This document shows, in pieces, positions 1 through 20,982 of a stretch of DNA of 21,165 bases. Each line of letters starts with the position of its first letter. The first letter of the stretch is position 1. The stretch spans positions 1 through 21,165 of the IMG/VR virus record IMGVR_UViG_3300042888_002167. One strand, 5' to 3'. The DNA comes from a virus. The notes below the pieces were generated by a model. That model had not been told where the DNA came from. It was given only the letters and a program-made list of their open reading frames with translations, and ran no database searches. Position numbers and translations under genes: made by a program.

Positions 1-1044
1 GACGCACTAGGCGACAGAATGAAAGAGTTCTACGAGGATAGAACCCGAATCAAACTCCCAAGGAGAACCTACACAATTATCCGTATCGACGGAAAAGCAT
101 TTCACACCTATACGAAAGGCTTAGAGAGACCATTTGACCAAGGACTTATTGAAGACATGAATGCAACTACTGCATATCTATGTAAAAATATCCAAGGCGT
201 TAAATTTGGTTACGTACAATCAGACGAGATTAGTTTAGTCCTAACAGACTTTGATGACTTAGGAACTCATGCCTGGTTTGACAATAACCTACAAAAAATG
301 GTAAGTGTTGCCGCTTCGATGGCAACCGCGGAATTCAATAAACTTAGGTTAGTAAGATACATGGAAGATAGCATGATCTTTTTAGAGCCTGAAGATATTG
401 GAAAATTCAAAATGGCAGAATTCGACGCCAGAGCTTTTCAAATTCCATTTATTGATGAGGTTAAAAACTATTTTATTTGGAGACAACAAGACGCTGTAAG
501 AAACAGTATCTCTTCAGTTGCTCAAAGTCTTTATAGTACTAAAGAACTTCATGGTGTTAAGACTGATCAAATGCAAGAATTGATTTTCCAAAAAGGAATC
601 AATTGGAATGATTATGATTTCCGTATGAAACGAGGTGCTGTGATCGGCAAAGTAGAAACTAGATTTACTAATGAAAATGGTGTTTTTACTAGAAATAAAT
701 GGCAAGTTATTGATACTCCAATTTTTACACAAGATCCATTCTTTTTAGCTGGATTACTAAGTAATCATAAAGGAAATGCAGATGTTGAATATACTAAAGT
801 TCCATATAGTCCTAAAGTAGGAGATCTAGTGTATTATCCTGTAGACGCAGCACCATTCATAGTAAATGGTATTAGAAAAGATGAAGTTGAAATTTACGGA
901 GATTGGAGCGGTGGAACAAATAATGCTATAGGTGCTGGTTGGGTAAAACTTGCAGAAATTGAACCTTACGATGAAAGTAAAGTAACATATTACGATAAAC
1001 AAGGTAAAGTAATTAATAAAAAAAGATGGAATGAGCTGGATTAA
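1..1044 (+). CDS. tRNA-His guanylyltransferase-like protein (Thg1 family), 5'-truncated by window edge
   Basis: Thg1 and Thg1-like proteins add nucleotides in the 3'-to-5' direction to tRNA 5' ends, either the G-1 of tRNA-His or repair of truncated ends. The family is recognised from the N-terminal block RTYTIIRIDGKAFHTYTKG, whose metal-binding Asp codon is at 88-90, and from QSDEIS with its Asp-Glu pair at 223-228. The first ATG in the window is at 19, but the frame is open upstream and encodes DALGDR before that Met. LGDRMK is normally internal in this family, so I infer that the true start lies before position 1 and that few residues are missing. The stop overlaps the next gene by 14 nt. 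It shares the window with tRNA genes and a CCA-adding-type enzyme, which fits a tRNA-repair or tRNA-maturation role. The family call is secure. Whether it acts on tRNA-His or in general 5' repair cannot be told. Confidence 0.9.
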   Translation, partial: DALGDRMKEFYEDRTRIKLPRRTYTIIRIDGKAFHTYTKGLERPFDQGLIEDMNATTAYLCKNIQGVKFGYVQSDEISLVLTDFDDLGTHAWFDNNLQKMVSVAASMATAEFNKLRLVRYMEDSMIFLEPEDIGKFKMAEFDARAFQIPFIDEVKNYFIWRQQDAVRNSISSVAQSLYSTKELHGVKTDQMQELIFQKGINWNDYDFRMKRGAVIGKVETRFTNENGVFTRNKWQVIDTPIFTQDPFFLAGLLSNHKGNADVEYTKVPYSPKVGDLVYYPVDAAPFIVNGIRKDEVEIYGDWSGGTNNAIGAGWVKLAEIEPYDESKVTYYDKQGKVINKKRWNELD

Positions 1045-2724: not shown

Positions 2725-4197
2725 ATGAATCCATTATTTTTAACAGACGGGTACAAAACAGGACATCACCAACAATATCCAAAGGGAACTACGTTGGTTT
2801 ATTCGAACTTCACACCCAGAAGTAACAAGTACGCACCAAAAGGTTGCGACCAATTAGTATCATTTGGACAACAAATGGTAATCAAACAAATTCATGAAGC
2901 ATTTGACAAAGATTTCTTTAGCAAACCTAAAGATGAAGTTTGTGGAGAAATGAAACGCGAATTATCATTGTACTTAAATACTGACTATGCTGTTAGTCAC
3001 TTTGAAGCATTGCATGATTTAGGTTATTTGCCAATTGCAGTTAAATCAATCGAAGAGGGTAGTTTAGTACCAATGAGAGTTCCAGTATTAACTATTTACA
3101 ATACACATCCAGATTTCTATTGGATTACAAACTACTTAGAAACAATTATTTCTAACTTGTTATGGAAACCAATGACTTCTGCAACTATTGCGCATACATA
3201 TCGTAAAGTGTTAACAGAATGGCAAGAAAAAACTGATGCTGAAAGAGCTTGGTTTATCGATTGGCAAGGACATGATTTCTCAATGAGAGGTCTAGATTCT
3301 ATTGATGCAACTATTAGTTCAGGTCTTGGTCATTTAACAAGTTTCTCTGGTTCTGACAGTTTACCAGCAATTTTTGGAGCCCGTAAATTCTACAATGAAG
3401 AAGGATTTGTAGCAGGTTCTGTGAATGCAACTGAACATTCAGTTATGTGTGCTGGATCTAAAGAAGATGAGGTTGGAACATTCCGAAACTTGATGGAAAC
3501 ATATCCAACAGGAATTCTTTCAATCGTATCAGATACTTGGGATTTATGGAAAGTTTGTACTGAACATATTGTTACTCTTAAAGAAGAGATTTTAGCAAGA
3601 GATGGTAAAGTAGTTATTCGTCCTGACTCAGGAGACCCTTCCGATATTATTTGTGGAATGAATACGTCAATTCGTAAAGTTTCTGATGAAGAAAAAGAAC
3701 ATCCTTCATATAAAGGTGTTATTGAATTACTTTGGGACGTATTTGGTGGAACTATCAACGAACAAGGTTACAAAGTTTTAGATTCTCACATTGGAGCAAT
3801 CTATGGAGATTCAATTACAATCGAAAGAGCAAATGAAATTTGTAGTAGATTAGAAGCAAAAGGATTTGCAAGTACAAACATTGTTTTAGGTGTAGGTTCA
3901 TTCACATACCAATTCAACACTAGAGATACTTTCGGTTTCGCAATGAAAGCAACTTATGTTGAAGTTAATGGTGAAGGTCGCGAAATCTTTAAAGATCCAA
4001 TCACTGATGATGGTATTAAAAAATCTGCAAAGGGTTTATTAAGAGTTGCAAAAAATGAAGATGGAGAGATTACATTATTTGACCAAGTTAATTGGTATGA
4101 TGAGAGTAAAGGAATGTTAAAAACTATTTATTTGAATGGTCAATTTGAAAATCAAACTACTCTTACTGAAATTCGTGAACGTTTAAAATTGGCATAA
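2725..4197 (+). CDS. Nicotinamide phosphoribosyltransferase (NAMPT)
   Basis: NAMPT (EC 2.4.2.12) makes nicotinamide mononucleotide from nicotinamide and PRPP, the rate-limiting step of NAD+ salvage. The protein is 490 residues, as for full-length NAMPT. It has the N-terminal LTDGYKTGHHQQYP (compare DSYKVTHYKQYP of animal enzymes), the catalytic His at 238 in NATEHSVM (equivalent to human H247) and the phosphate-binding RPDSGDP at 299-305 (human R311, D313). SGSDSLPAIFGAR lies at about residues 211-223 in the substrate pocket region. The stop overlaps the next start (TAATG). Phage NAMPT enzymes are known in NAD+ reconstitution pathways that counter NAD-depleting defences, where they pair with an NMN adenylyltransferase. 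No such partner is visible in this window. Confidence 0.96.
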   Translation: MNPLFLTDGYKTGHHQQYPKGTTLVYSNFTPRSNKYAPKGCDQLVSFGQQMVIKQIHEAFDKDFFSKPKDEVCGEMKRELSLYLNTDYAVSHFEALHDLGYLPIAVKSIEEGSLVPMRVPVLTIYNTHPDFYWITNYLETIISNLLWKPMTSATIAHTYRKVLTEWQEKTDAERAWFIDWQGHDFSMRGLDSIDATISSGLGHLTSFSGSDSLPAIFGARKFYNEEGFVAGSVNATEHSVMCAGSKEDEVGTFRNLMETYPTGILSIVSDTWDLWKVCTEHIVTLKEEILARDGKVVIRPDSGDPSDIICGMNTSIRKVSDEEKEHPSYKGVIELLWDVFGGTINEQGYKVLDSHIGAIYGDSITIERANEICSRLEAKGFASTNIVLGVGSFTYQFNTRDTFGFAMKATYVEVNGEGREIFKDPITDDGIKKSAKGLLRVAKNEDGEITLFDQVNWYDESKGMLKTIYLNGQFENQTTLTEIRERLKLA

Positions 4198-5462: not shown

Positions 5463-5639
5463 ATGGAAATTTATACAGTAATCCCATTTTATTTCGATGG
5501 AATCGAAATCTTTCAAAATGACGTTATAAGTTTTGAAAATTATGATGATGCATATTATTATGCAACAAATCATCTAGATGGACGAAAATTTGAAATTATT
5601 AAAAACATTTTAAAAAAATATTATGCCAAAAATATTTAA
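5463..5639 (+). CDS. Small protein of unknown function (58 aa)
   Basis: The reading frame is open from 5424, but that ATG lies within the promoter -7 region. The ATG at 5463 follows the conserved leader and is the start. The protein begins MEIYTVIPFYFDGIEIF and is rich in Tyr, Asp and Ile (DDAYYYATNH), with a basic C-terminal helix. It overlaps the nucleotidyltransferase gene by 17 nt. Not recognised. Confidence 0.75.
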   Translation: MEIYTVIPFYFDGIEIFQNDVISFENYDDAYYYATNHLDGRKFEIIKNILKKYYAKNI

Positions 5640-6357
5640 AGTCGGAGGTTGTATCAGAGATAAGTTTCTCGGTATCGACTCAAAAGACATAGATTTTACA
5701 TTTGTATTGGACAACTTAGATTGGACTGTAGAGAGTGGATTTGAAATCATGACAGAATGGATGATTGTAAATGGATTTGAAATATTCTTAAGTACTCCAG
5801 ATTGTTTTACAATTCGCGCTAAATTTCCAAAGGACCATCAGTTCGCTGGATTGGTTGCTGATTTTGTAATGGCAAGAAAGGAAGTTGGATATGTTGAAGG
5901 TACCCGTAGACCGATCTTAGAACTTGGAACTCTTGAAGATGATTTGTTACGTCGAGATTTCACCTTAAATGCACTTGCCGAAGATGTTGATGGAAACATT
6001 ATTGATTTATTTGGAGGTATAGAAGATTTAAAGGTTGGTGTTCTAAGAACCCCGCTGGACGCTAGAATTACAATGATGGATGACCCATTAAGAATCTTAA
6101 GAGCCCTAAGATTTACAATCACAAAAGATTTTGTAATGAGCGATGATATTTGGGAAGCAATGAAACAGCCAGGAATCTTAAAGAAATTAGAATTGACGGT
6201 AAGTGGACAAAGAATCAGAGAAGAAATCGACAAAATGATGAGATTTAATACTATCAGAAGTTTTAGACTCTTAATGGATGTAGATTCTATCATTCCAGGA
6301 TTTTTAGAATTGATCTTCAAAGACGGAATGTGGTTAATGCCAACCTTTAAAAAATAA
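5623..6357 (+). CDS. CCA-adding-type tRNA nucleotidyltransferase (class II, short form)
   Basis: This family adds CCA to tRNA 3' ends (or A to RNA 3' ends). Class II hallmarks are present in order: VGGCIRD at residues 7-13, the catalytic pair DID at 22-24, RRDFTLNALA (about residue 110), DLFGGIEDL (about 128) and DPLRILRALRF (about 150). An EEID segment follows near 200. At 244 residues it holds the catalytic head and neck but lacks most of the body and tail of cellular enzymes (usually about 400 aa or more), and it has no HD domain. Most complete tRNA-like 3' ends in this window lack an encoded CCA, which makes a phage CCA enzyme useful. Whether it adds CCA, CC or A cannot be settled by reading. 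Confidence 0.9.
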   Translation: MPKIFKVGGCIRDKFLGIDSKDIDFTFVLDNLDWTVESGFEIMTEWMIVNGFEIFLSTPDCFTIRAKFPKDHQFAGLVADFVMARKEVGYVEGTRRPILELGTLEDDLLRRDFTLNALAEDVDGNIIDLFGGIEDLKVGVLRTPLDARITMMDDPLRILRALRFTITKDFVMSDDIWEAMKQPGILKKLELTVSGQRIREEIDKMMRFNTIRSFRLLMDVDSIIPGFLELIFKDGMWLMPTFKK

Positions 6358-7483: not shown

Positions 7484-7711
7484 ATGGCGGCAGAAAGTAA
7501 TACACCGAATGATATTGAAATTTGGATTGTTAAAGTCCTAGAATCATGTACCAGTTTAAGTCAAATAGTTAGAGCCAGACGCTTAATTGATTTTTATGGA
7601 AGAAAAATAGATGCTGAAGGAAGCCTTTCAGGTGATGTTAAAAATCACATCAAAAGTAAACTAATCCTAAAGTATAAAAAGATTAAATCAAATATAATTA
7701 AAATTGCATAA
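7484..7711 (+). CDS. Small helical protein of unknown function (75 aa)
   Basis: Begins MAAESNTPNDIEIWIVKVLESC, continues with ARRLIDFYGRKID, and ends in a Lys/Ile-rich tail (ILKYKKIKSNIIKIA). It looks all-helical and basic at the C-terminus. The ATG at 7484 is preferred to the upstream one at 7457, which lies in the preceding gene. Its TAA overlaps the next ATG (TAATG). Not recognised. Confidence 0.72.
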   Translation: MAAESNTPNDIEIWIVKVLESCTSLSQIVRARRLIDFYGRKIDAEGSLSGDVKNHIKSKLILKYKKIKSNIIKIA

Positions 7712-8283
7712 TGAAAGTAATATTTCTAGATAATGACGGTGTAATTTGTCTCTATAATAATTGGGGAGGCAGGGCTAAGAAATGGTCGAAATACCGTTCT
7801 GAAAATCCAGAAAGCAGTTCAAACTTAAAGGATGCCCCTGTAGAAATACGCTTCGATGATTTTGACAAAAAAGCCATTAAGATACTTAATACAATCATCA
7901 AGGAAACTGGCGCTGAAATTGTTGTAAGTTCAGATTGGAAATTACATGCAAATCTAGAAGAGCTTGGAGATTATTATGAAGCACAAGGAATTATTAAACG
8001 TCCAATTGCAATAACTCCAAATCTTCATGAATTCGATCCAGAGTCGAATGACCTATTTATGTGGAAAAAATGGTTAGAACGTAAAAGAATTGTTGAGATT
8101 AAAAGATACTTAGATATGTACCCAAATATTACAAATTGGGTTGCTGTTGATGATTTAAACATGAGTCTTGAAGCAAACGGAGGAATTGGACTAGAAAACT
8201 TTGTCCTAACACCAAGAAGTTCCGAAGGAATTAAACAGTCCGGTACTACCGAAAAAATAATTCACTTTTTAACAAAAAATTAA
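7711..8283 (+). CDS. HAD-superfamily hydrolase, probable phosphatase
   Basis: A 190-residue protein. Motif I is FLDNDGV (Asp7 nucleophile, Asp9 acid/base), motif II is VVSSDWK near residue 72, and the motif IV acidic pair is VAVDDLN near residue 150. This fits the HAD group that includes Swiss-army-knife RNA repair type domains. The likely reaction is phosphoester hydrolysis; the substrate could be a nucleotide or a 3'/5' phosphate on nucleic acid. It is coupled to the upstream gene by a TAATG overlap and is the last gene before promoter P3. The HAD call is firm, the substrate open. Confidence 0.85.
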   Translation: MKVIFLDNDGVICLYNNWGGRAKKWSKYRSENPESSSNLKDAPVEIRFDDFDKKAIKILNTIIKETGAEIVVSSDWKLHANLEELGDYYEAQGIIKRPIAITPNLHEFDPESNDLFMWKKWLERKRIVEIKRYLDMYPNITNWVAVDDLNMSLEANGGIGLENFVLTPRSSEGIKQSGTTEKIIHFLTKN

Positions 8284-12407: not shown

Positions 12408-13277
12408 ATGCCTTTACAAACTAGTGGACCAATAAGCATAGAAAATATAAGGAACCAGCTCGGTTTAAGACCGCAAGATTTTGGCTCTAGAAGCCTTCTT
12501 TATCTTAGCGAATATGTGGGATTTTCTGCGCCCCATGCAATGTCAGATTTTTACGGATATCCACCATATCCGCCATACGGAGAATTCTATGAAAGCTATT
12601 GTACCGGTTGTGTTCTTTATTTTGTATATCATGATGGAAGCGGCGGTTATTATACAGTAGCTCAGGACTACGATTCACCAATATGTGGCGGATCTTGCGG
12701 TGGTGCTGGCGGTTATTATTGCTACGATTACTGGGGAAATTGTGGTATATACCAATATCCATGCTACAATTACGGATATGAAAGCTGCGGTGGAGGAGCA
12801 TGTTTACTAGAAGGTACTTTAGTTAAACTATCAGACGGAACCGAAATTACAATTGAATCAGTAACAACAGGTATGGAATTATCTTCTATTATAGTTGGTG
12901 ATATGCCAAACACTGATGCATATGAACCATTATCACTATGGTCTGAAACAAATCCTACTTTATCTAATACATCTGTAACAGTTTCTAAAAATATAGAGAA
13001 AATAGTAGGTAGTGTATTAATTTTTAATGATGGTTTACTAACTTCAAGCGAAGATCACTTGCATGTTGTAAAAAGAAATTCAATATGGTCAGTAATGAGA
13101 GCTAATGACATTTTAGTTGGCGATTCATTTATTAATCAAGATGGATCTGAACAAATAATTAATTCTATTGTAAAAAATACAGGATCATTTAAAGTTTACA
13201 AATTAGACGTAGAGTCTAATGACATATACATAGCAAATGGTATAATTACACATAACAAAATCGAAGATATTCAATAA
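12408..13277 (+). CDS. Virion/tail-fibre-type protein with C-terminal Hint (intein-like) domain
   Basis: A 289-residue protein with three regions. Residues 1-50 match the N-terminus of T4-like phage tail-fibre or virion proteins: MPLQTSGPISIENIRNQLG, then a LSEYVG segment and AMSDFYG. Residues 51-131 are very rich in Tyr, Gly and Cys. Residues 132-283 form a complete Hint domain: Cys132 in ACLLEGTLVKLSDGTEITI (block A), the block B His in SSEDHLHVV, and the terminal His-Asn in ANGIITHN (282-283), followed by Lys284 and only five more residues. As in bacterial intein-like domains, the residue after Asn is not Cys, Ser or Thr, so cleavage or transfer is more likely than true splicing. It is probably a structural protein that processes itself. 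Confidence 0.85.
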   Translation: MPLQTSGPISIENIRNQLGLRPQDFGSRSLLYLSEYVGFSAPHAMSDFYGYPPYPPYGEFYESYCTGCVLYFVYHDGSGGYYTVAQDYDSPICGGSCGGAGGYYCYDYWGNCGIYQYPCYNYGYESCGGGACLLEGTLVKLSDGTEITIESVTTGMELSSIIVGDMPNTDAYEPLSLWSETNPTLSNTSVTVSKNIEKIVGSVLIFNDGLLTSSEDHLHVVKRNSIWSVMRANDILVGDSFINQDGSEQIINSIVKNTGSFKVYKLDVESNDIYIANGIITHNKIEDIQ

Positions 13278-16492: not shown

Positions 16493-16561
16493 GAACCCGC
16501 TACAAAACGACGCGCGAAATTAATCTCGACTTGTACTGTCTGGCAGGTCAGACCGGGTTCA
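16493..16561 (+). ncRNA. tRNA-like RNA element, 69 nt
   Basis: A 7-bp outer stem GAACCCG (16493-16499) / CGGGTTC (16554-16560) is followed by one A at a discriminator-like position. Directly inside its 3' strand lies a 5-bp hairpin GTCTG/CAGAC (16538-16542 / 16549-16553), in the position of a T-arm. The loop is GCAGGT rather than TTCGA. A D-arm and a clear anticodon arm are missing. It is a tRNA-like fold or a degenerate tRNA; no isotype can be given. Confidence 0.45.
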
Positions 16562-16563
16562 GG

Positions 16564-16665
16564 AGTCAGGTAATACGTAATGTGAAAAATGGTATCACAT
16601 CCTAGACTAAACTTGAAAAAGTTATGTTGGTTGTATTGTTGTAGGTTCGAGTCCTACCTTGACTA
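16564..16665 (+). tRNA. Divergent or interrupted tRNA-like gene A (102 nt), isotype unknown
   Basis: The 5' acceptor strand AGTCAGG (16564-16570) pairs with CTTGACT (16658-16664), one G.U pair. The T-arm GTAGG/CCTAC with loop TTCGAGT (16641-16657) is canonical, and A16665 is the discriminator; no CCA is encoded. A D-arm-like hairpin (TGTGA/TCACA, loop with GG) lies 12 nt from the acceptor rather than 2. The middle holds an extra hairpin AACTT-GAAA-AAGTT. No acceptable anticodon arm is visible, so part of the middle may be an insertion. Confidence 0.5.
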
Positions 16666-16723
16666 CTCTACTTAAGCTAGTTTATGAACAGCCTTTGAGG
16701 TGCAATGCCTTCATTAGAATGGA

Positions 16724-16813
16724 AGTCAGGTGGCGGAATTGGTAGACGCTTACAGAATATCTAAGGCAATTTATTCCCATTTATTCATACAGGTTCGAAT
16801 CCTGTCCTGACGA
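16724..16813 (+). tRNA. Leu-type tRNA-like gene B (90 nt), anticodon not resolved
   Basis: AGTCAGG-TG-GCGG-AATTGGTAGA-CGC (16724-16749) is a textbook Leu 5' half. The T-arm ACAGG/CCTGT with TTCGAAT and the acceptor strand CCTGACG follow (16789-16812), with A16813 and no CCA. Position 1 (A) faces G at position 72, a mismatch. The best anticodon-region stem is GAATA (16755-16759) / TATTC (16772-16776), with a 12-nt loop instead of 7. This suggests a short insertion or decay. Confidence 0.55.
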
Positions 16814-16974
16814 CAATGAGTTGATTACTCAGATGGATTCATCTATCCCTAAAGATGACGACATACTCTTGGGCGTTAGGCAAGAGCGTAGTTTGAAATT
16901 CAGTTTAGTCGATATTACAACTGAGCTCGGAAGGCAACTTATTTCGTGAGGTTTCATCAACCATAATTGCAAAC
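16814..16974 (+). ncRNA. Structured non-coding stretch between tRNA-like genes
   Basis: No reading frame of note. Several hairpins are visible: TGAGT/ACTCA (from 16817), AGATG/CATCT, CTCTTG/CAAGAG with loop GGCGTTAGG (16866-16886) and TCAGTT/AACTGA. Two short segments recur in the neighbouring tRNA-like genes: the G-CGTTAGGCA motif (16871 and 17010) and AAGGCAA-TTATT (16763 and 16931). It may be part of a processed RNA or an intron remnant. Confidence 0.4.
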
Positions 16975-17072
16975 AGTCAGGTGGCGGAATTGGCAACAAT
17001 GATGTTAATGGACGTTAGGCAGAGTCGCTCTCGGTAAGCCCTATCCTACAGGTTCGAATCCTGTCCTGACTA
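16975..17072 (+). tRNA. Leu-type tRNA-like gene C with D-loop insertion (98 nt)
   Basis: The acceptor AGTCAGG (16975-16981) / CCTGACT (17065-17071) is fully paired. TG-GCGG-AATTGG opens a Leu-type D-arm, and the T-arm ACAGG/CCTGT with TTCGAAT (17048-17064) is canonical. The discriminator is A17072; no CCA. After AATTGG an extra hairpin AACA-ATGA-TGTT appears inside the D-loop, followed by GGACGTTAGGCAGAG, a motif shared with 16871. No normal anticodon arm is visible. Confidence 0.5.
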
Positions 17073-17080
17073 CAAAAAAA

Positions 17081-17285
17081 CGGCCAGTAATGCGGTAAAT
17101 ATTATAGATGTTTATAAACGTAAGTTTATCTGAACAGGATATCGGGGAGACCTATTAAGTATAATATTGTTCCGAGGATTAGATGGAAGTTAAGGAAAAT
17201 AACCGGACAAAACATGTTGTTCAGATGTGACTAGAAAGGTTATGAGTATGTAATCACGTTGGGGGTTCGAACCCTTCCTGGCTGA
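17081..17285 (+). tRNA. tRNA-like gene D interrupted by about 130 nt, possible intron
   Basis: CGGCCAG (17081-17087) pairs with CTGGCTG (17278-17284), one G.U. The T-arm GGGGG/CCTTC with TTCGAAC (17261-17277) and A17285 complete the 3' end; no CCA. The 205-nt span is about 130 nt longer than a tRNA. The insert has a hairpin ATAAAC-GTAA-GTTTAT (17115-17130) and a 9-bp helix ATCTGAACA/TGTTCAGAT (17128-17136 / 17218-17226), mutually exclusive by 3 nt. GTTCAGATGTGACTAGA resembles the group I intron R element, with possible partner TAATCAC (17251-17257). The anticodon cannot be placed. Confidence 0.5.
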
Positions 17286-17302
17286 CAAATAAATTAAAAT
17301 AA

Positions 17303-17403
17303 GGTTGCGTGGTGTAAAAGGTGACACTTCCTCAAAGGGAATAGAACGAACTCGAGATACTTCTATTCTTTGGAAATTGCAGGTTCGAATCCTGTCGTGA
17401 CCA
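17303..17403 (+). tRNA. tRNA-like gene E with hairpin insertion (101 nt), isotype unknown
   Basis: The acceptor GGTTGCG (17303-17309) / CGTGACC (17396-17402) pairs with two G.U. The D-arm GTGT/ACAC with loop AAAAGGTG is good, and the T-arm GCAGG/CCTGT with TTCGAAT is canonical; the discriminator is A17403, no CCA. The anticodon region carries an extra hairpin of 8 bp, GAATAGAA (17339-17346) / TTCTATTC (17361-17368). TTCC and GGAA flank it and may be the anticodon stem. TCAAAGGGAATAGAAC here resembles the segment after the 5' half of the permuted Leu gene (20480-20495). Confidence 0.52.
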
Positions 17404-17410
17404 CAAATTG

Positions 17411-20356: not shown

Positions 20357-20497
20357 AGGTTCCTTACAGCAATTAAATTCTATAAGGAAACTGGTATCGA
20401 AAGATGTGTAGGTTCGAGTCCTACCTCTCCAACAAATTTTAAAGTATTTGGAGAGTGGTGAAATTGGTAGACACACTGGTCAAAGAAAATGGAACCT
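20357..20497 (+). tRNA. Circularly permuted Leu-type tRNA gene (3' part upstream of 5' part)
   Basis: Upstream part: variable-arm-like hairpin TATC-GAAA-GATG, T-arm GTAGG/CCTAC with TTCGAGT (20408-20424), 3' acceptor strand CTCTCCA (20425-20431), A20432. Then a 16-nt linker. Downstream part: TGGAGAG (20449-20455), which pairs with CTCTCCA over all 7 bp, TG, and the Leu-type D-arm GTGA-AATTGGTAGA-CAC (20458-20474). The outer flanks AGGTTCC (20357-20363) and GGAACCT (20491-20497) can pair over 7 bp. CTGGT (20476-20480) and ACTGG (20390-20394) could form the anticodon stem with two G.U pairs, but a 7-nt loop with U33 cannot be built simply, so no anticodon is given. No encoded CCA. Confidence 0.7.
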
Positions 20498-20503
20498 GTT
20501 ATC

Positions 20504-20577
<74 letters not shown>

Positions 20578-20578
20578 C

Positions 20579-20653
20579 AATATTTTAAAGGATACGTTCA
20601 GCAAATTAAAAACTTGATCTGTAAATTCAAACAACAGTTATCCTGTAAATATT
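20579..20653 (+). ncRNA. Miniature element related to the permuted-tRNA flanks, with Tyr-like anticodon hairpin
   Basis: Outer helices AATATTT/AAATATT (20579-20585 / 20647-20653) and AGGATA/TATCCT (20589-20594 / 20639-20644) enclose TTCAGCAAATTAAAAACT, the sequence that precedes the permuted exons in the neighbouring genes. A small hairpin follows: TTGA/TCAA around TCTGTAAAT, containing CTGTAAA as in tRNA-Tyr(GUA) anticodon loops (GTA at 20621-20623). There is no acceptor, D- or T-arm. Confidence 0.55.
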
Positions 20654-20658
20654 AAACT

Positions 20659-20745
20659 GCTCGGGTGATGAAATCGGTAGACATGCAAGACTTAAAATCT
20701 TGTGGACAGCTGTCCGTGCGGGTTCGATTCCCGCCCCGAGTACCA
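20659..20745 (+). tRNA. tRNA-Leu(UAA), CCA encoded
   Basis: Acceptor GCTCGGG/CCCGAGT (G1.U72), D-arm ATGA-AATCGGTAGA-CAT, anticodon stem CAAGA/TCTTG with loop CTTAAAA and anticodon TAA (20693-20695), a long variable arm with GGACAG/CTGTCC, and T-arm GCGGG/CCCGC with TTCGATT. It is uninterrupted. CCA is encoded at 20743-20745, unlike the other tRNAs here; the final A adjoins the flank helix of the next, permuted gene. Confidence 0.95.
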
Positions 20746-20867
20746 AGGATGGTTACTGCAAATAATAAAAACTAGGCTGTTAACCTCGTGGTCGTTGGTT
20801 CGAACCCAACCATTATTTTTAGGAATAGTGTAGCTCAGTTGGTAGAGCACGTATCTAAACCCATCCT
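20746..20867 (+). tRNA. Circularly permuted tRNA-Asn(GUU) gene
   Basis: The 3' part (20774-20818) comes first: AGG, anticodon loop CTGTTAA (anticodon GTT, 20779-20781), CCTCG, variable TGGTC, T-arm GTTGG/CCAAC with TTCGAAC, acceptor CATTATT, T. After a 5-nt linker the 5' part follows (20824-20851): acceptor AATAGTG (pairs with CATTATT, one G.U), TA, D-arm GCTC/GAGC with loop AGTTGGTA, A26, CG. Joining CG to AGG gives anticodon stem CGAGG/CCTCG, all Watson-Crick, so the break lies between positions 28 and 29. Outer flanks AGGATGG (20746-20752) and CCATCCT (20861-20867) pair over 7 bp. No CCA is encoded; the base after the acceptor is U, unusual for a discriminator. Confidence 0.85.
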
Positions 20868-20879
20868 GATATATTTAAA

Positions 20880-20950
20880 AAGTGTCTCGGTCCGCTCTGA
20901 AGAAATTCAACGACGAGGTCTCGATAGGCAGAACGCGTCTGACCTATCCA
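20880..20950 (+). ncRNA. Structured RNA of unknown type before the terminator
   Basis: Arm 1: CTCG (20886-20889) / CGAG (20914-20917) with an inner hairpin TGAA-GAAA-TTCA (20898-20909). Arm 2: GATAGG-CAGA (20923-20932) / TCTG-A-CCTATC (20938-20948), ten pairs with one bulged A. It has no reading frame and lies between the permuted tRNA-Asn and the terminator, so it would be the 3' end of the transcript. It may be a stable small RNA like those found in the T4 tRNA cluster; identity unknown. Confidence 0.5.
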
Positions 20951-20956
20951 CAGAAT

Positions 20957-20982
20957 AAAAGGGACCTTTCGGTCCCTTTTTT
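20957..20982 (+). terminator. Strong intrinsic terminator T3
   Basis: AAAA-GGGACC-TTTC-GGTCCC-TTTTTT: a 6-bp GC-rich stem with a UUUC tetraloop, an A-run before it and six T residues after. It closes the second RNA cluster. Confidence 0.95.

What the first reader, a model, noticed from the sequence alone, without database searches (positions are those of the whole stretch)
20746..20867. Circularly permuted tRNA-Asn(GUU) in a phage genome, broken inside the anticodon stem
The 3' part (anticodon loop to acceptor) lies upstream of the 5' part (acceptor, D-arm). Read in permuted order, every arm pairs: acceptor 7 bp, D 4 bp, anticodon 5 bp (CGAGG/CCTCG, made only by joining the two parts), T 5 bp. 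The loop CTGTTAA has U33 and anticodon GUU. Permuted tRNA genes are known from some algae and archaea, where a bulge-helix-bulge endonuclease and a ligase act. Bacteria lack that endonuclease, so the maturation route would be new. The break at 28/29 is also unusual.
Basis: partly seen in the sequence, partly recalled or inferred. Interest (0 to 1): 0.95.

Follow-up and report, generated by a model that had tools for sequence, protein, structure and literature searches.

The report
Phage tRNA mimics on RNA handles
A stretch that looks like a tRNA gene with its halves swapped is one of hundreds of unannotated phage RNAs in which a tRNA look-alike, or just an anticodon loop, sits on a shared short "handle" stem; they are probably lures that protect the phage from bacterial enzymes that destroy tRNAs, not working tRNAs.

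Summary
The permuted tRNA-Asn order is real (20746-20868), has a sibling at 20357-20498, and is conserved in three related contigs with compensatory changes. But it is not best read as a tRNA gene awaiting splicing. Its flanks, AGGNNNN-UUACWGCAA ... NNNNCCU-G, are a conserved handle found in hundreds of phage copies. Without pairing being imposed, 147 of 149 handle matches pair fully, with 25 different helix words. The same handle carries lone anticodon stem-loops of many identities (including 20589-20645), linear tRNA-like RNAs, permuted tRNAs with capped acceptor stems, and other RNAs. Some permuted bodies have no usable anticodon loop; in others the anticodon is swapped on near-identical bodies. 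In Caulobacter phage CcrColossus the same permuted body sits on a longer stem beside a Ro60 (TROVE) gene, so the body is a Y-RNA-type tRNA mimic. The handle matches dictyostelid Class I RNA, reported only from social amoebae, below Rfam's cut-off but in 7 of 13 phages and none of 14 control genomes. Best explanation: an unspliced, handle-borne tRNA/anticodon decoy against tRNA-cutting defences. Structure and family are well supported; the decoy role is inferred. Splicing to a working tRNA is unlikely but not excluded.

The parts
20746..20868 (+). Handle-borne permuted tRNA mimic with GUU anticodon loop (the finding)
20746..20761 (+). 5' handle: P1 strand AGGATGG plus TTACTGCAA
20774..20793 (+). 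3' part start: 29-31, anticodon loop CTGTTAA, 39-43, variable loop
20794..20810 (+). T-arm
20811..20830 (+). Acceptor stem closed by a short cap loop (extended hairpin in relatives L008, L010, L011)
20833..20851 (+). D-arm, base 26 and bases 27-28 (CG) that pair with 42-43 of the 3' part
20861..20868 (+). 3' handle: P1 strand CCATCCT plus G
20357..20498 (+). Second permuted mimic: class II (Leu-like) body, handle AGGTTCC/GGAACCT attached where the anticodon loop should be
20589..20645 (+). Lone anticodon stem-loop (CTGTAAA, GUA) on the same handle (AGGATA..TATCCTG); anticodon is GUA or UUU in orthologues
20504..20578 (+). Ordinary tRNA-Ala(TGC) in the same array
20659..20745 (+). Ordinary tRNA-Leu(TAA) in the same array

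Best explanation
20746-20868 encodes a small stable RNA, not a tRNA precursor. Its two ends form a 7-bp terminal stem (AGGNNNN/NNNNCCU, then G) followed by single-stranded UUACWGCAA: a shared handle, probably a protein-binding or end-protecting site. The handle is attached inside the anticodon arm of a tRNA-shaped domain whose acceptor is closed by a loop. A permuted gene is simply what results when the free ends are moved from the acceptor to the anticodon arm. The RNA stays unspliced, cannot be charged as transcribed, and displays a tRNA elbow and a GUU anticodon loop. The phage makes a set of such RNAs from its tRNA cluster (permuted mimics, lone anticodon loops, handle-on-acceptor mimics), most likely as decoys that occupy host enzymes cutting tRNAs during infection, alongside ordinary tRNAs and tRNA-repair enzymes. 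Shown: permuted order, handle, cargo variety, covariation, anticodon swapping, Y-RNA link. Inferred: handle retained in the mature RNA, protein binding, decoy function.
For: Handle: 147/149 pattern matches pair fully though pairing was not imposed, 25 helix words; 229 elements versus 3 with scrambled helix words; 55/70 viral versus 0/16 cellular pattern matches have the helix. Lone anticodon arms: 53/93 small cargoes meet strict criteria (>=4 bp, 7-nt loop, U33, purine 37) versus a shuffle mean of 8.6, maximum 13. Same handle on linear tRNA-like and other cargoes. Anticodon uncoupled from body: at >=80% body identity 15/20 mimic pairs differ in anticodon versus 57/282 pairs of ordinary tRNAs; L166 and L190 bodies are 98% identical with anticodons UAA and GAU. 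One orthologous lone loop is GUA in some relatives and UUU in others while the handle is invariant; tRNA-Tyr and tRNA-Lys are known defence targets (PMC11555353, PMC11455837). Leu-like bodies show no consistent anticodon loop. CcrColossus: same body and break beside a TROVE gene. YrlA's tRNA-like domain has been proposed as a competitive inhibitor of an anticodon nuclease (PMC7790460). The window also encodes Thg1, a CCA-adding-type enzyme and an RNA-repair-associated HAD domain.
Against: No expression, processing or binding data. The clean sum of two parts into 5-bp stems with normal loops (28/68) is also what splicing would need. Short acceptor caps do not exclude tRNA maturation: known permuted tRNAs have intervening sequences of 1-74 nt (PMC3978253). 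RNAfold shows the anticodon hairpin at over 50% probability in only 8/27 unspliced RNAs. No handle-binding protein was identified.
Confidence: 0.6

Rival explanations
1. A true permuted tRNA gene: the flank helix is a permuted intron, the two parts are cut and ligated at 28/29 (by a phage or host RNA ligase), the circle is opened by RNase P and 3' processing, CCA is added, and a working tRNA-Asn results.
For: Exact reconstitution of stem and loop; 27-43 pairs in 22/28 (4 pair types) and 28-42 in 19/28 (3 types); Rnl2-type RNA ligase in 6/12 phages including two window relatives, RtcB in one; CCA-adding-type enzyme in the window; intervening sequences as short as 1 nt are known.
Against: Same handle on lone anticodon arms and linear tRNA-like RNAs; many permuted bodies lack an anticodon loop; anticodon swapped on near-identical bodies; no bulge-helix-bulge at the break and no splicing endonuclease; phages with many ordinary tRNAs carry these too.
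Confidence: 0.12
2. Circular decoy: the handle drives excision and circularisation of the cargo (ligase-assisted or ribozyme-like), and the RNA circle itself is the stable decoy, never used in translation.
For: Circularising fits every cargo type, including lone arms; RNA ligases in half of the phages.
Against: No ligase found in 6/12 phages, though those records may be incomplete; dictyostelid Class I RNAs keep their terminal stem and CUGU end (PMC7919456); no conserved bases seen at the cargo borders.
Confidence: 0.12
3. Platform RNA: the tRNA-like domain tethers a nuclease or repair enzyme to damaged tRNAs, as Y RNA links Rsr to PNPase, and the handle binds a phage protein that replaces Ro60.
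For: Y-RNA-type body beside TROVE genes in other phages; jumbo-phage TROVE proteins with a tRNA-like partner have been linked to RNA repair (PMC7824862); tRNA-repair genes in the window.
Against: No TROVE gene in 12 handle-bearing phages; lone anticodon loops with many anticodons look like bait rather than a fixed tether.
Confidence: 0.14
4. Degenerate tRNA debris or assembly artefact.
For: Neighbouring odd tRNA-like sequences at 16500-17410.
Against: Conserved architecture with compensatory changes in contigs from many metagenomes and in the deposited genome of Synechococcus phage BUCT-ZZ01.
Confidence: 0.01

Closest known systems
Bacterial Y RNAs of the YrlA type (RF02553)
   Same: Permuted T-arm, capped acceptor, D-arm module with the RNA ends in a stem at the anticodon side; in CcrColossus and csAssE-Sib such bodies lie beside Ro60/TROVE genes.
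   Different: Handle instead of the Ro-binding stem; no TROVE gene in 12 phages; complete anticodon arm with varied anticodons; same handle on lone anticodon loops; below the gathering score (31.6 versus 69).
Dictyostelid Class I RNAs (RF01414)
   Same: Terminal stem, UUACAGCAA directly after its 5' strand, CUGU-like 3' end, similar length for the lone-loop RNAs; 7/13 phages match at E <= 1e-3, 0/14 controls; several score above 25 bits, the candidate score used in the original searches.
   Different: Below the Rfam gathering score (best 34.5 versus 41.5); found in phages; cargo is anticodon arms or tRNA mimics. Homology or convergence is undecided.
Circularly permuted tRNA genes of algae and archaea
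   Same: 3' part before 5' part, cloverleaf on joining.
   Different: No bulge-helix-bulge or splicing endonuclease; same flanks on non-tRNA cargoes; several bodies without anticodon loop.
Phage tRNAs that evade tRNA-targeting defence (T5-like tRNA-Tyr and tRNA-Lys)
   Same: Phage RNA presenting a targeted tRNA species; Tyr and Lys recur.
   Different: Those are functional replacement tRNAs; these cannot be charged as transcribed.

Membership tests
Circularly permuted tRNA gene | 3' half upstream of 5' half with cloverleaf pairing when joined | tested here: met
Circularly permuted tRNA gene | Bulge-helix-bulge at the junction | tested here: not met
   P1 is separated from the break by 21 and 9 nt of A-rich sequence; no 4-bp helix with 3-nt bulges seen at the break (by inspection)
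Circularly permuted tRNA gene | tRNA-splicing endonuclease available | tested here: inconclusive
   PF01974 0/12 phages, records may be partial; hosts not examined
Circularly permuted tRNA gene | Mature, charged tRNA from a circular intermediate | not testable with these tools
   needs RNA from infected cells
YrlA Y RNA (RF02553) | Permuted T-arm, capped acceptor, D-arm module | tested here: met
   aligned over the full YrlA model
YrlA Y RNA (RF02553) | Rfam gathering score 69 | tested here: not met
   31.6 bits in the window; best phage 48.9
YrlA Y RNA (RF02553) | Ro60/TROVE gene in the genome | tested here: not met
   0/12 handle-bearing phages; present beside the related RNAs of CcrColossus and csAssE-Sib
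Dictyostelid Class I RNA (RF01414) | Terminal stem, UUACAGCAA motif, CUGU end | tested here: met
   family level: 221/229 elements have G after P1 and 170 have GTT; 82 have exactly TTACAGCAA. The window's permuted Asn itself has TTACTGCAA and CCTGA
Dictyostelid Class I RNA (RF01414) | Rfam gathering score 41.5 | tested here: not met
   best 34.5 bits; window 22.1
Group I or II intron (permuted intron-exon) | Conserved intron core | tested here: not met
   no Rfam match in or around the elements

The most novel reading that the evidence does not exclude
A new phage RNA class: modular RNAs in which one handle, shared with (possibly homologous to) dictyostelid Class I RNA, displays interchangeable anticodon loops and tRNA mimics, an evolving bait library against tRNA-cleaving immunity and the first relatives of Class I RNA outside social amoebae.
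Probability: 0.4. Interest if true: 0.95.

Novelty: categorically new. Interest (0 to 1): 0.87.

Why it matters
It would reveal a large unannotated layer of phage biology: arrays of small RNAs that imitate tRNAs or just their anticodon loops. The anticodon repertoire would be a readable record of which tRNAs host defences attack, and tRNA counts in phage genomes would need rechecking for mimics. It offers simple test objects (50-130-nt RNAs, some in Synechococcus phage BUCT-ZZ01, recorded on the laboratory strain S. elongatus PCC 7942) and gives Class I RNA, whose molecular role is unclear, possible relatives in phages. It also warns that a permuted tRNA in a bacterial system need not imply splicing. 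Novelty is rated on the family as a whole: the permuted body alone is a variant of a known kind (Y RNA), but I found no described system that displays isolated anticodon arms and tRNA mimics on one shared handle.

Tried and rejected
Permuted intron of group I/II type: no Rfam match. Skipping-rope motif as the known name: no Rfam match and nothing useful in the papers. Tripartite tRNA (Leu-like body plus lone loop as its missing anticodon arm): rejected because each handle pairs only with itself, lone loops outnumber loop-less bodies in several contigs, and joining would give a 10-bp anticodon stem. Short acceptor caps as proof against splicing: dropped after PMC3978253 (1-74 nt known). Cellular genome hits of the pattern: 0/16 have the helix, so chance. 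Whole-window megablast and the 16.5-17.4 kb region against named phages: no match. T4 Rnl1 family search uninformative because its control rang nowhere. Sub-threshold YrlA hits in whole genomes are weakly specific, since 7/14 control genomes also ring, so the YrlA link rests on architecture and TROVE neighbourhood.

Full report
Observation. The sequence at 20746-20868 reads as reported: handle strand, anticodon loop with 39-43, T-arm, acceptor 3' strand, cap, acceptor 5' strand, D-arm, bases 27-28, handle strand. ARAGORN finds only tRNA-Ala and tRNA-Leu beside it; Rfam places it below threshold as tRNA (27.2 bits) and as YrlA (31.6 bits). The window is a complete 21,165-base virus record; relatives were found through the DNA-ligase-like gene, three of them contigs of about 235 kb.

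Conservation. Three related contigs keep the permuted order. In L008 and L011 the acceptor is replaced by a different, fully paired helix; in L010 it pairs only 5/7. In all three the cap is an extended hairpin whose pairs change together (GCC-TTAA-GTGGC versus GTC-TTAA-GTGAC). A second permuted body (20357-20498) shows compensatory changes in its anticodon stem (CTGGT/ACTGG, TCTGT/ACAGA, CCGGT/ACTGG, CTAGT/ACTGG). A third element, 20589-20645, has the same kind of flanks around a lone stem-loop with CTGTAAA and is kept in distant relatives that lack the permuted RNAs at this spot.

A widespread element. Searching for the flank motif near a T-loop found the same arrangement in many unrelated phages. 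With the helix required, 229 distinct elements were found against 3 with scrambled helix words. The cleanest test imposed no pairing: of 149 matches to TTAGGNNNNNTTCAGCAA...CCTGTTR, 147 have full complementarity between the two variable words, with 25 different words. Cellular hits of the tRNA-type pattern have the helix in 0/16. In whole phage genomes the elements sit in one tRNA-rich stretch.

Cargoes. Among 249 non-redundant elements my rules permuted, 65 lone stem-loops, 27 linear tRNA-like with a shortened acceptor, 17 with a T-arm only and 69 other; the classes are approximate. Of 93 small cargoes 53 meet strict anticodon-arm criteria, versus at most 13 in dinucleotide shuffles; anticodons cover Lys, Met, Ser, Thr, Asn, Pro, Tyr, Arg, Ile, Phe and others, with Lys UUU the most frequent. 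Of 68 permuted RNAs, 62 pair at 6 or more of 7 acceptor positions, versus 13.5% with a foreign strand under the same optimisation. 28 have an intact loop; in fixed register, positions 30-40 and 31-39 pair in 28/28 with four pair types each (the register was chosen partly by pairing). The handle attaches at 26/27, 28/29 or 29/30; in the Leu-like group it takes the place of the anticodon loop.

Why not a tRNA gene. (i) The same handle carries cargo that cannot become a tRNA. (ii) Anticodon and body are uncoupled: at 80% or more body identity 15/20 pairs differ in anticodon, versus 57/282 ordinary tRNA pairs from the same kind of contigs (several of the same-anticodon mimic pairs are the window's own relatives). 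(iii) Leu-like and some other bodies give no consistent seven-base loop with U33 in any register I tried. (iv) These phages carry many ordinary tRNAs. (v) No splicing endonuclease. None of these alone disproves splicing, and I could not examine RNA.

What it resembles. Caulobacter phage CcrColossus has a permuted body with loop CTGTTAA and a CT|CGA break on a long stem, in a row of YrlA-like matches upstream of an annotated TROVE-like gene; the gut phage csAssE-Sib has one beside a Ro sixty-related gene. So the permuted body is the Y-RNA tRNA-like module, and here its Ro-binding stem is replaced by another handle. That handle is built like the terminal stem plus UUACAGCAA plus CUGU of dictyostelid Class I RNA, described as absent from all other organisms examined (PMC7919456). 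In four loci all matches of the Class I model that I checked fall on handle elements, and 7 of 13 phages but none of 14 control genomes match it, always below Rfam's cut-off. I do not file the RNA in either family.

Function. Bacteria cut tRNAs to block phages: AriB of PARIS cuts tRNA-Lys (PMC11455837) and retron-Eco7 PtuAB depletes tRNA-Tyr (PMC11555353). [quoted passage not shown] One orthologous lone loop here is GUA in some relatives and UUU in others, with an invariant handle. The window also encodes Thg1, a CCA-adding-type enzyme, an RNA-repair-associated HAD domain and NAD-salvage enzymes, the kit described for jumbo phages under translation attack (PMC7824862). I therefore favour decoys. 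This step is inference; circular decoys and a repair or decay platform remain open.

Confidence. Existence and architecture of the family: near certain. Handle retained, not a working tRNA: about 0.8. Decoy role: about 0.5-0.6.

Noticed in passing
window 16500-17410: Four odd tRNA-like sequences (Rfam tRNA matches at 16620, 16724, 16975, 17303) with long inserts in the anticodon region; the stretch 16790-16993 (T-arm, about 160-nt linker, D-arm start) lies in a different order relative to its neighbours in L015 and L017, so it may be another permuted RNA with a long cap domain.
   Followed up: partly
window 20880-20982: Strongly conserved structured stretch (GTGTCTCGG...CTATCC) just before a terminator-like hairpin at the end of the array, kept in most relatives including several distant ones; no Rfam match above threshold.
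   Followed up: no
L077, L137, L151, L166 and others: Same handle around non-tRNA cargoes: 85-120-nt RNAs with a GCGACTAATAATCGC-type hairpin resembling a tmRNA stop hairpin, and 150-275-nt RNAs ending ...ACCAGAAAATAAA; no Rfam match.
   Followed up: no
window 2230, 5380, 8270, 9740, 13800, 14442, 14946, 17437: About 75-bp near-identical repeats between genes, also in relatives; look like repeated promoter regions.
   Followed up: no
window 19-1041, 5623-6354, 7711-8280, 2725-4194: Thg1 family, poly(A) polymerase/CCA-adding head domain, HAD_SAK_2 RNA-repair-associated domain, NAMPT/NAPRTase: a tRNA-repair and NAD kit.
   Followed up: partly
window 12408-13274: Protein with a weak C-terminal intein/Hint-like match.
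   Followed up: no
L401 and ON615601.1 113370 (-): Synechococcus phage BUCT-ZZ01 carries a lone-loop element, a permuted RNA and a larger handle RNA in its tRNA cluster; none annotated at the matched places.
   Followed up: partly
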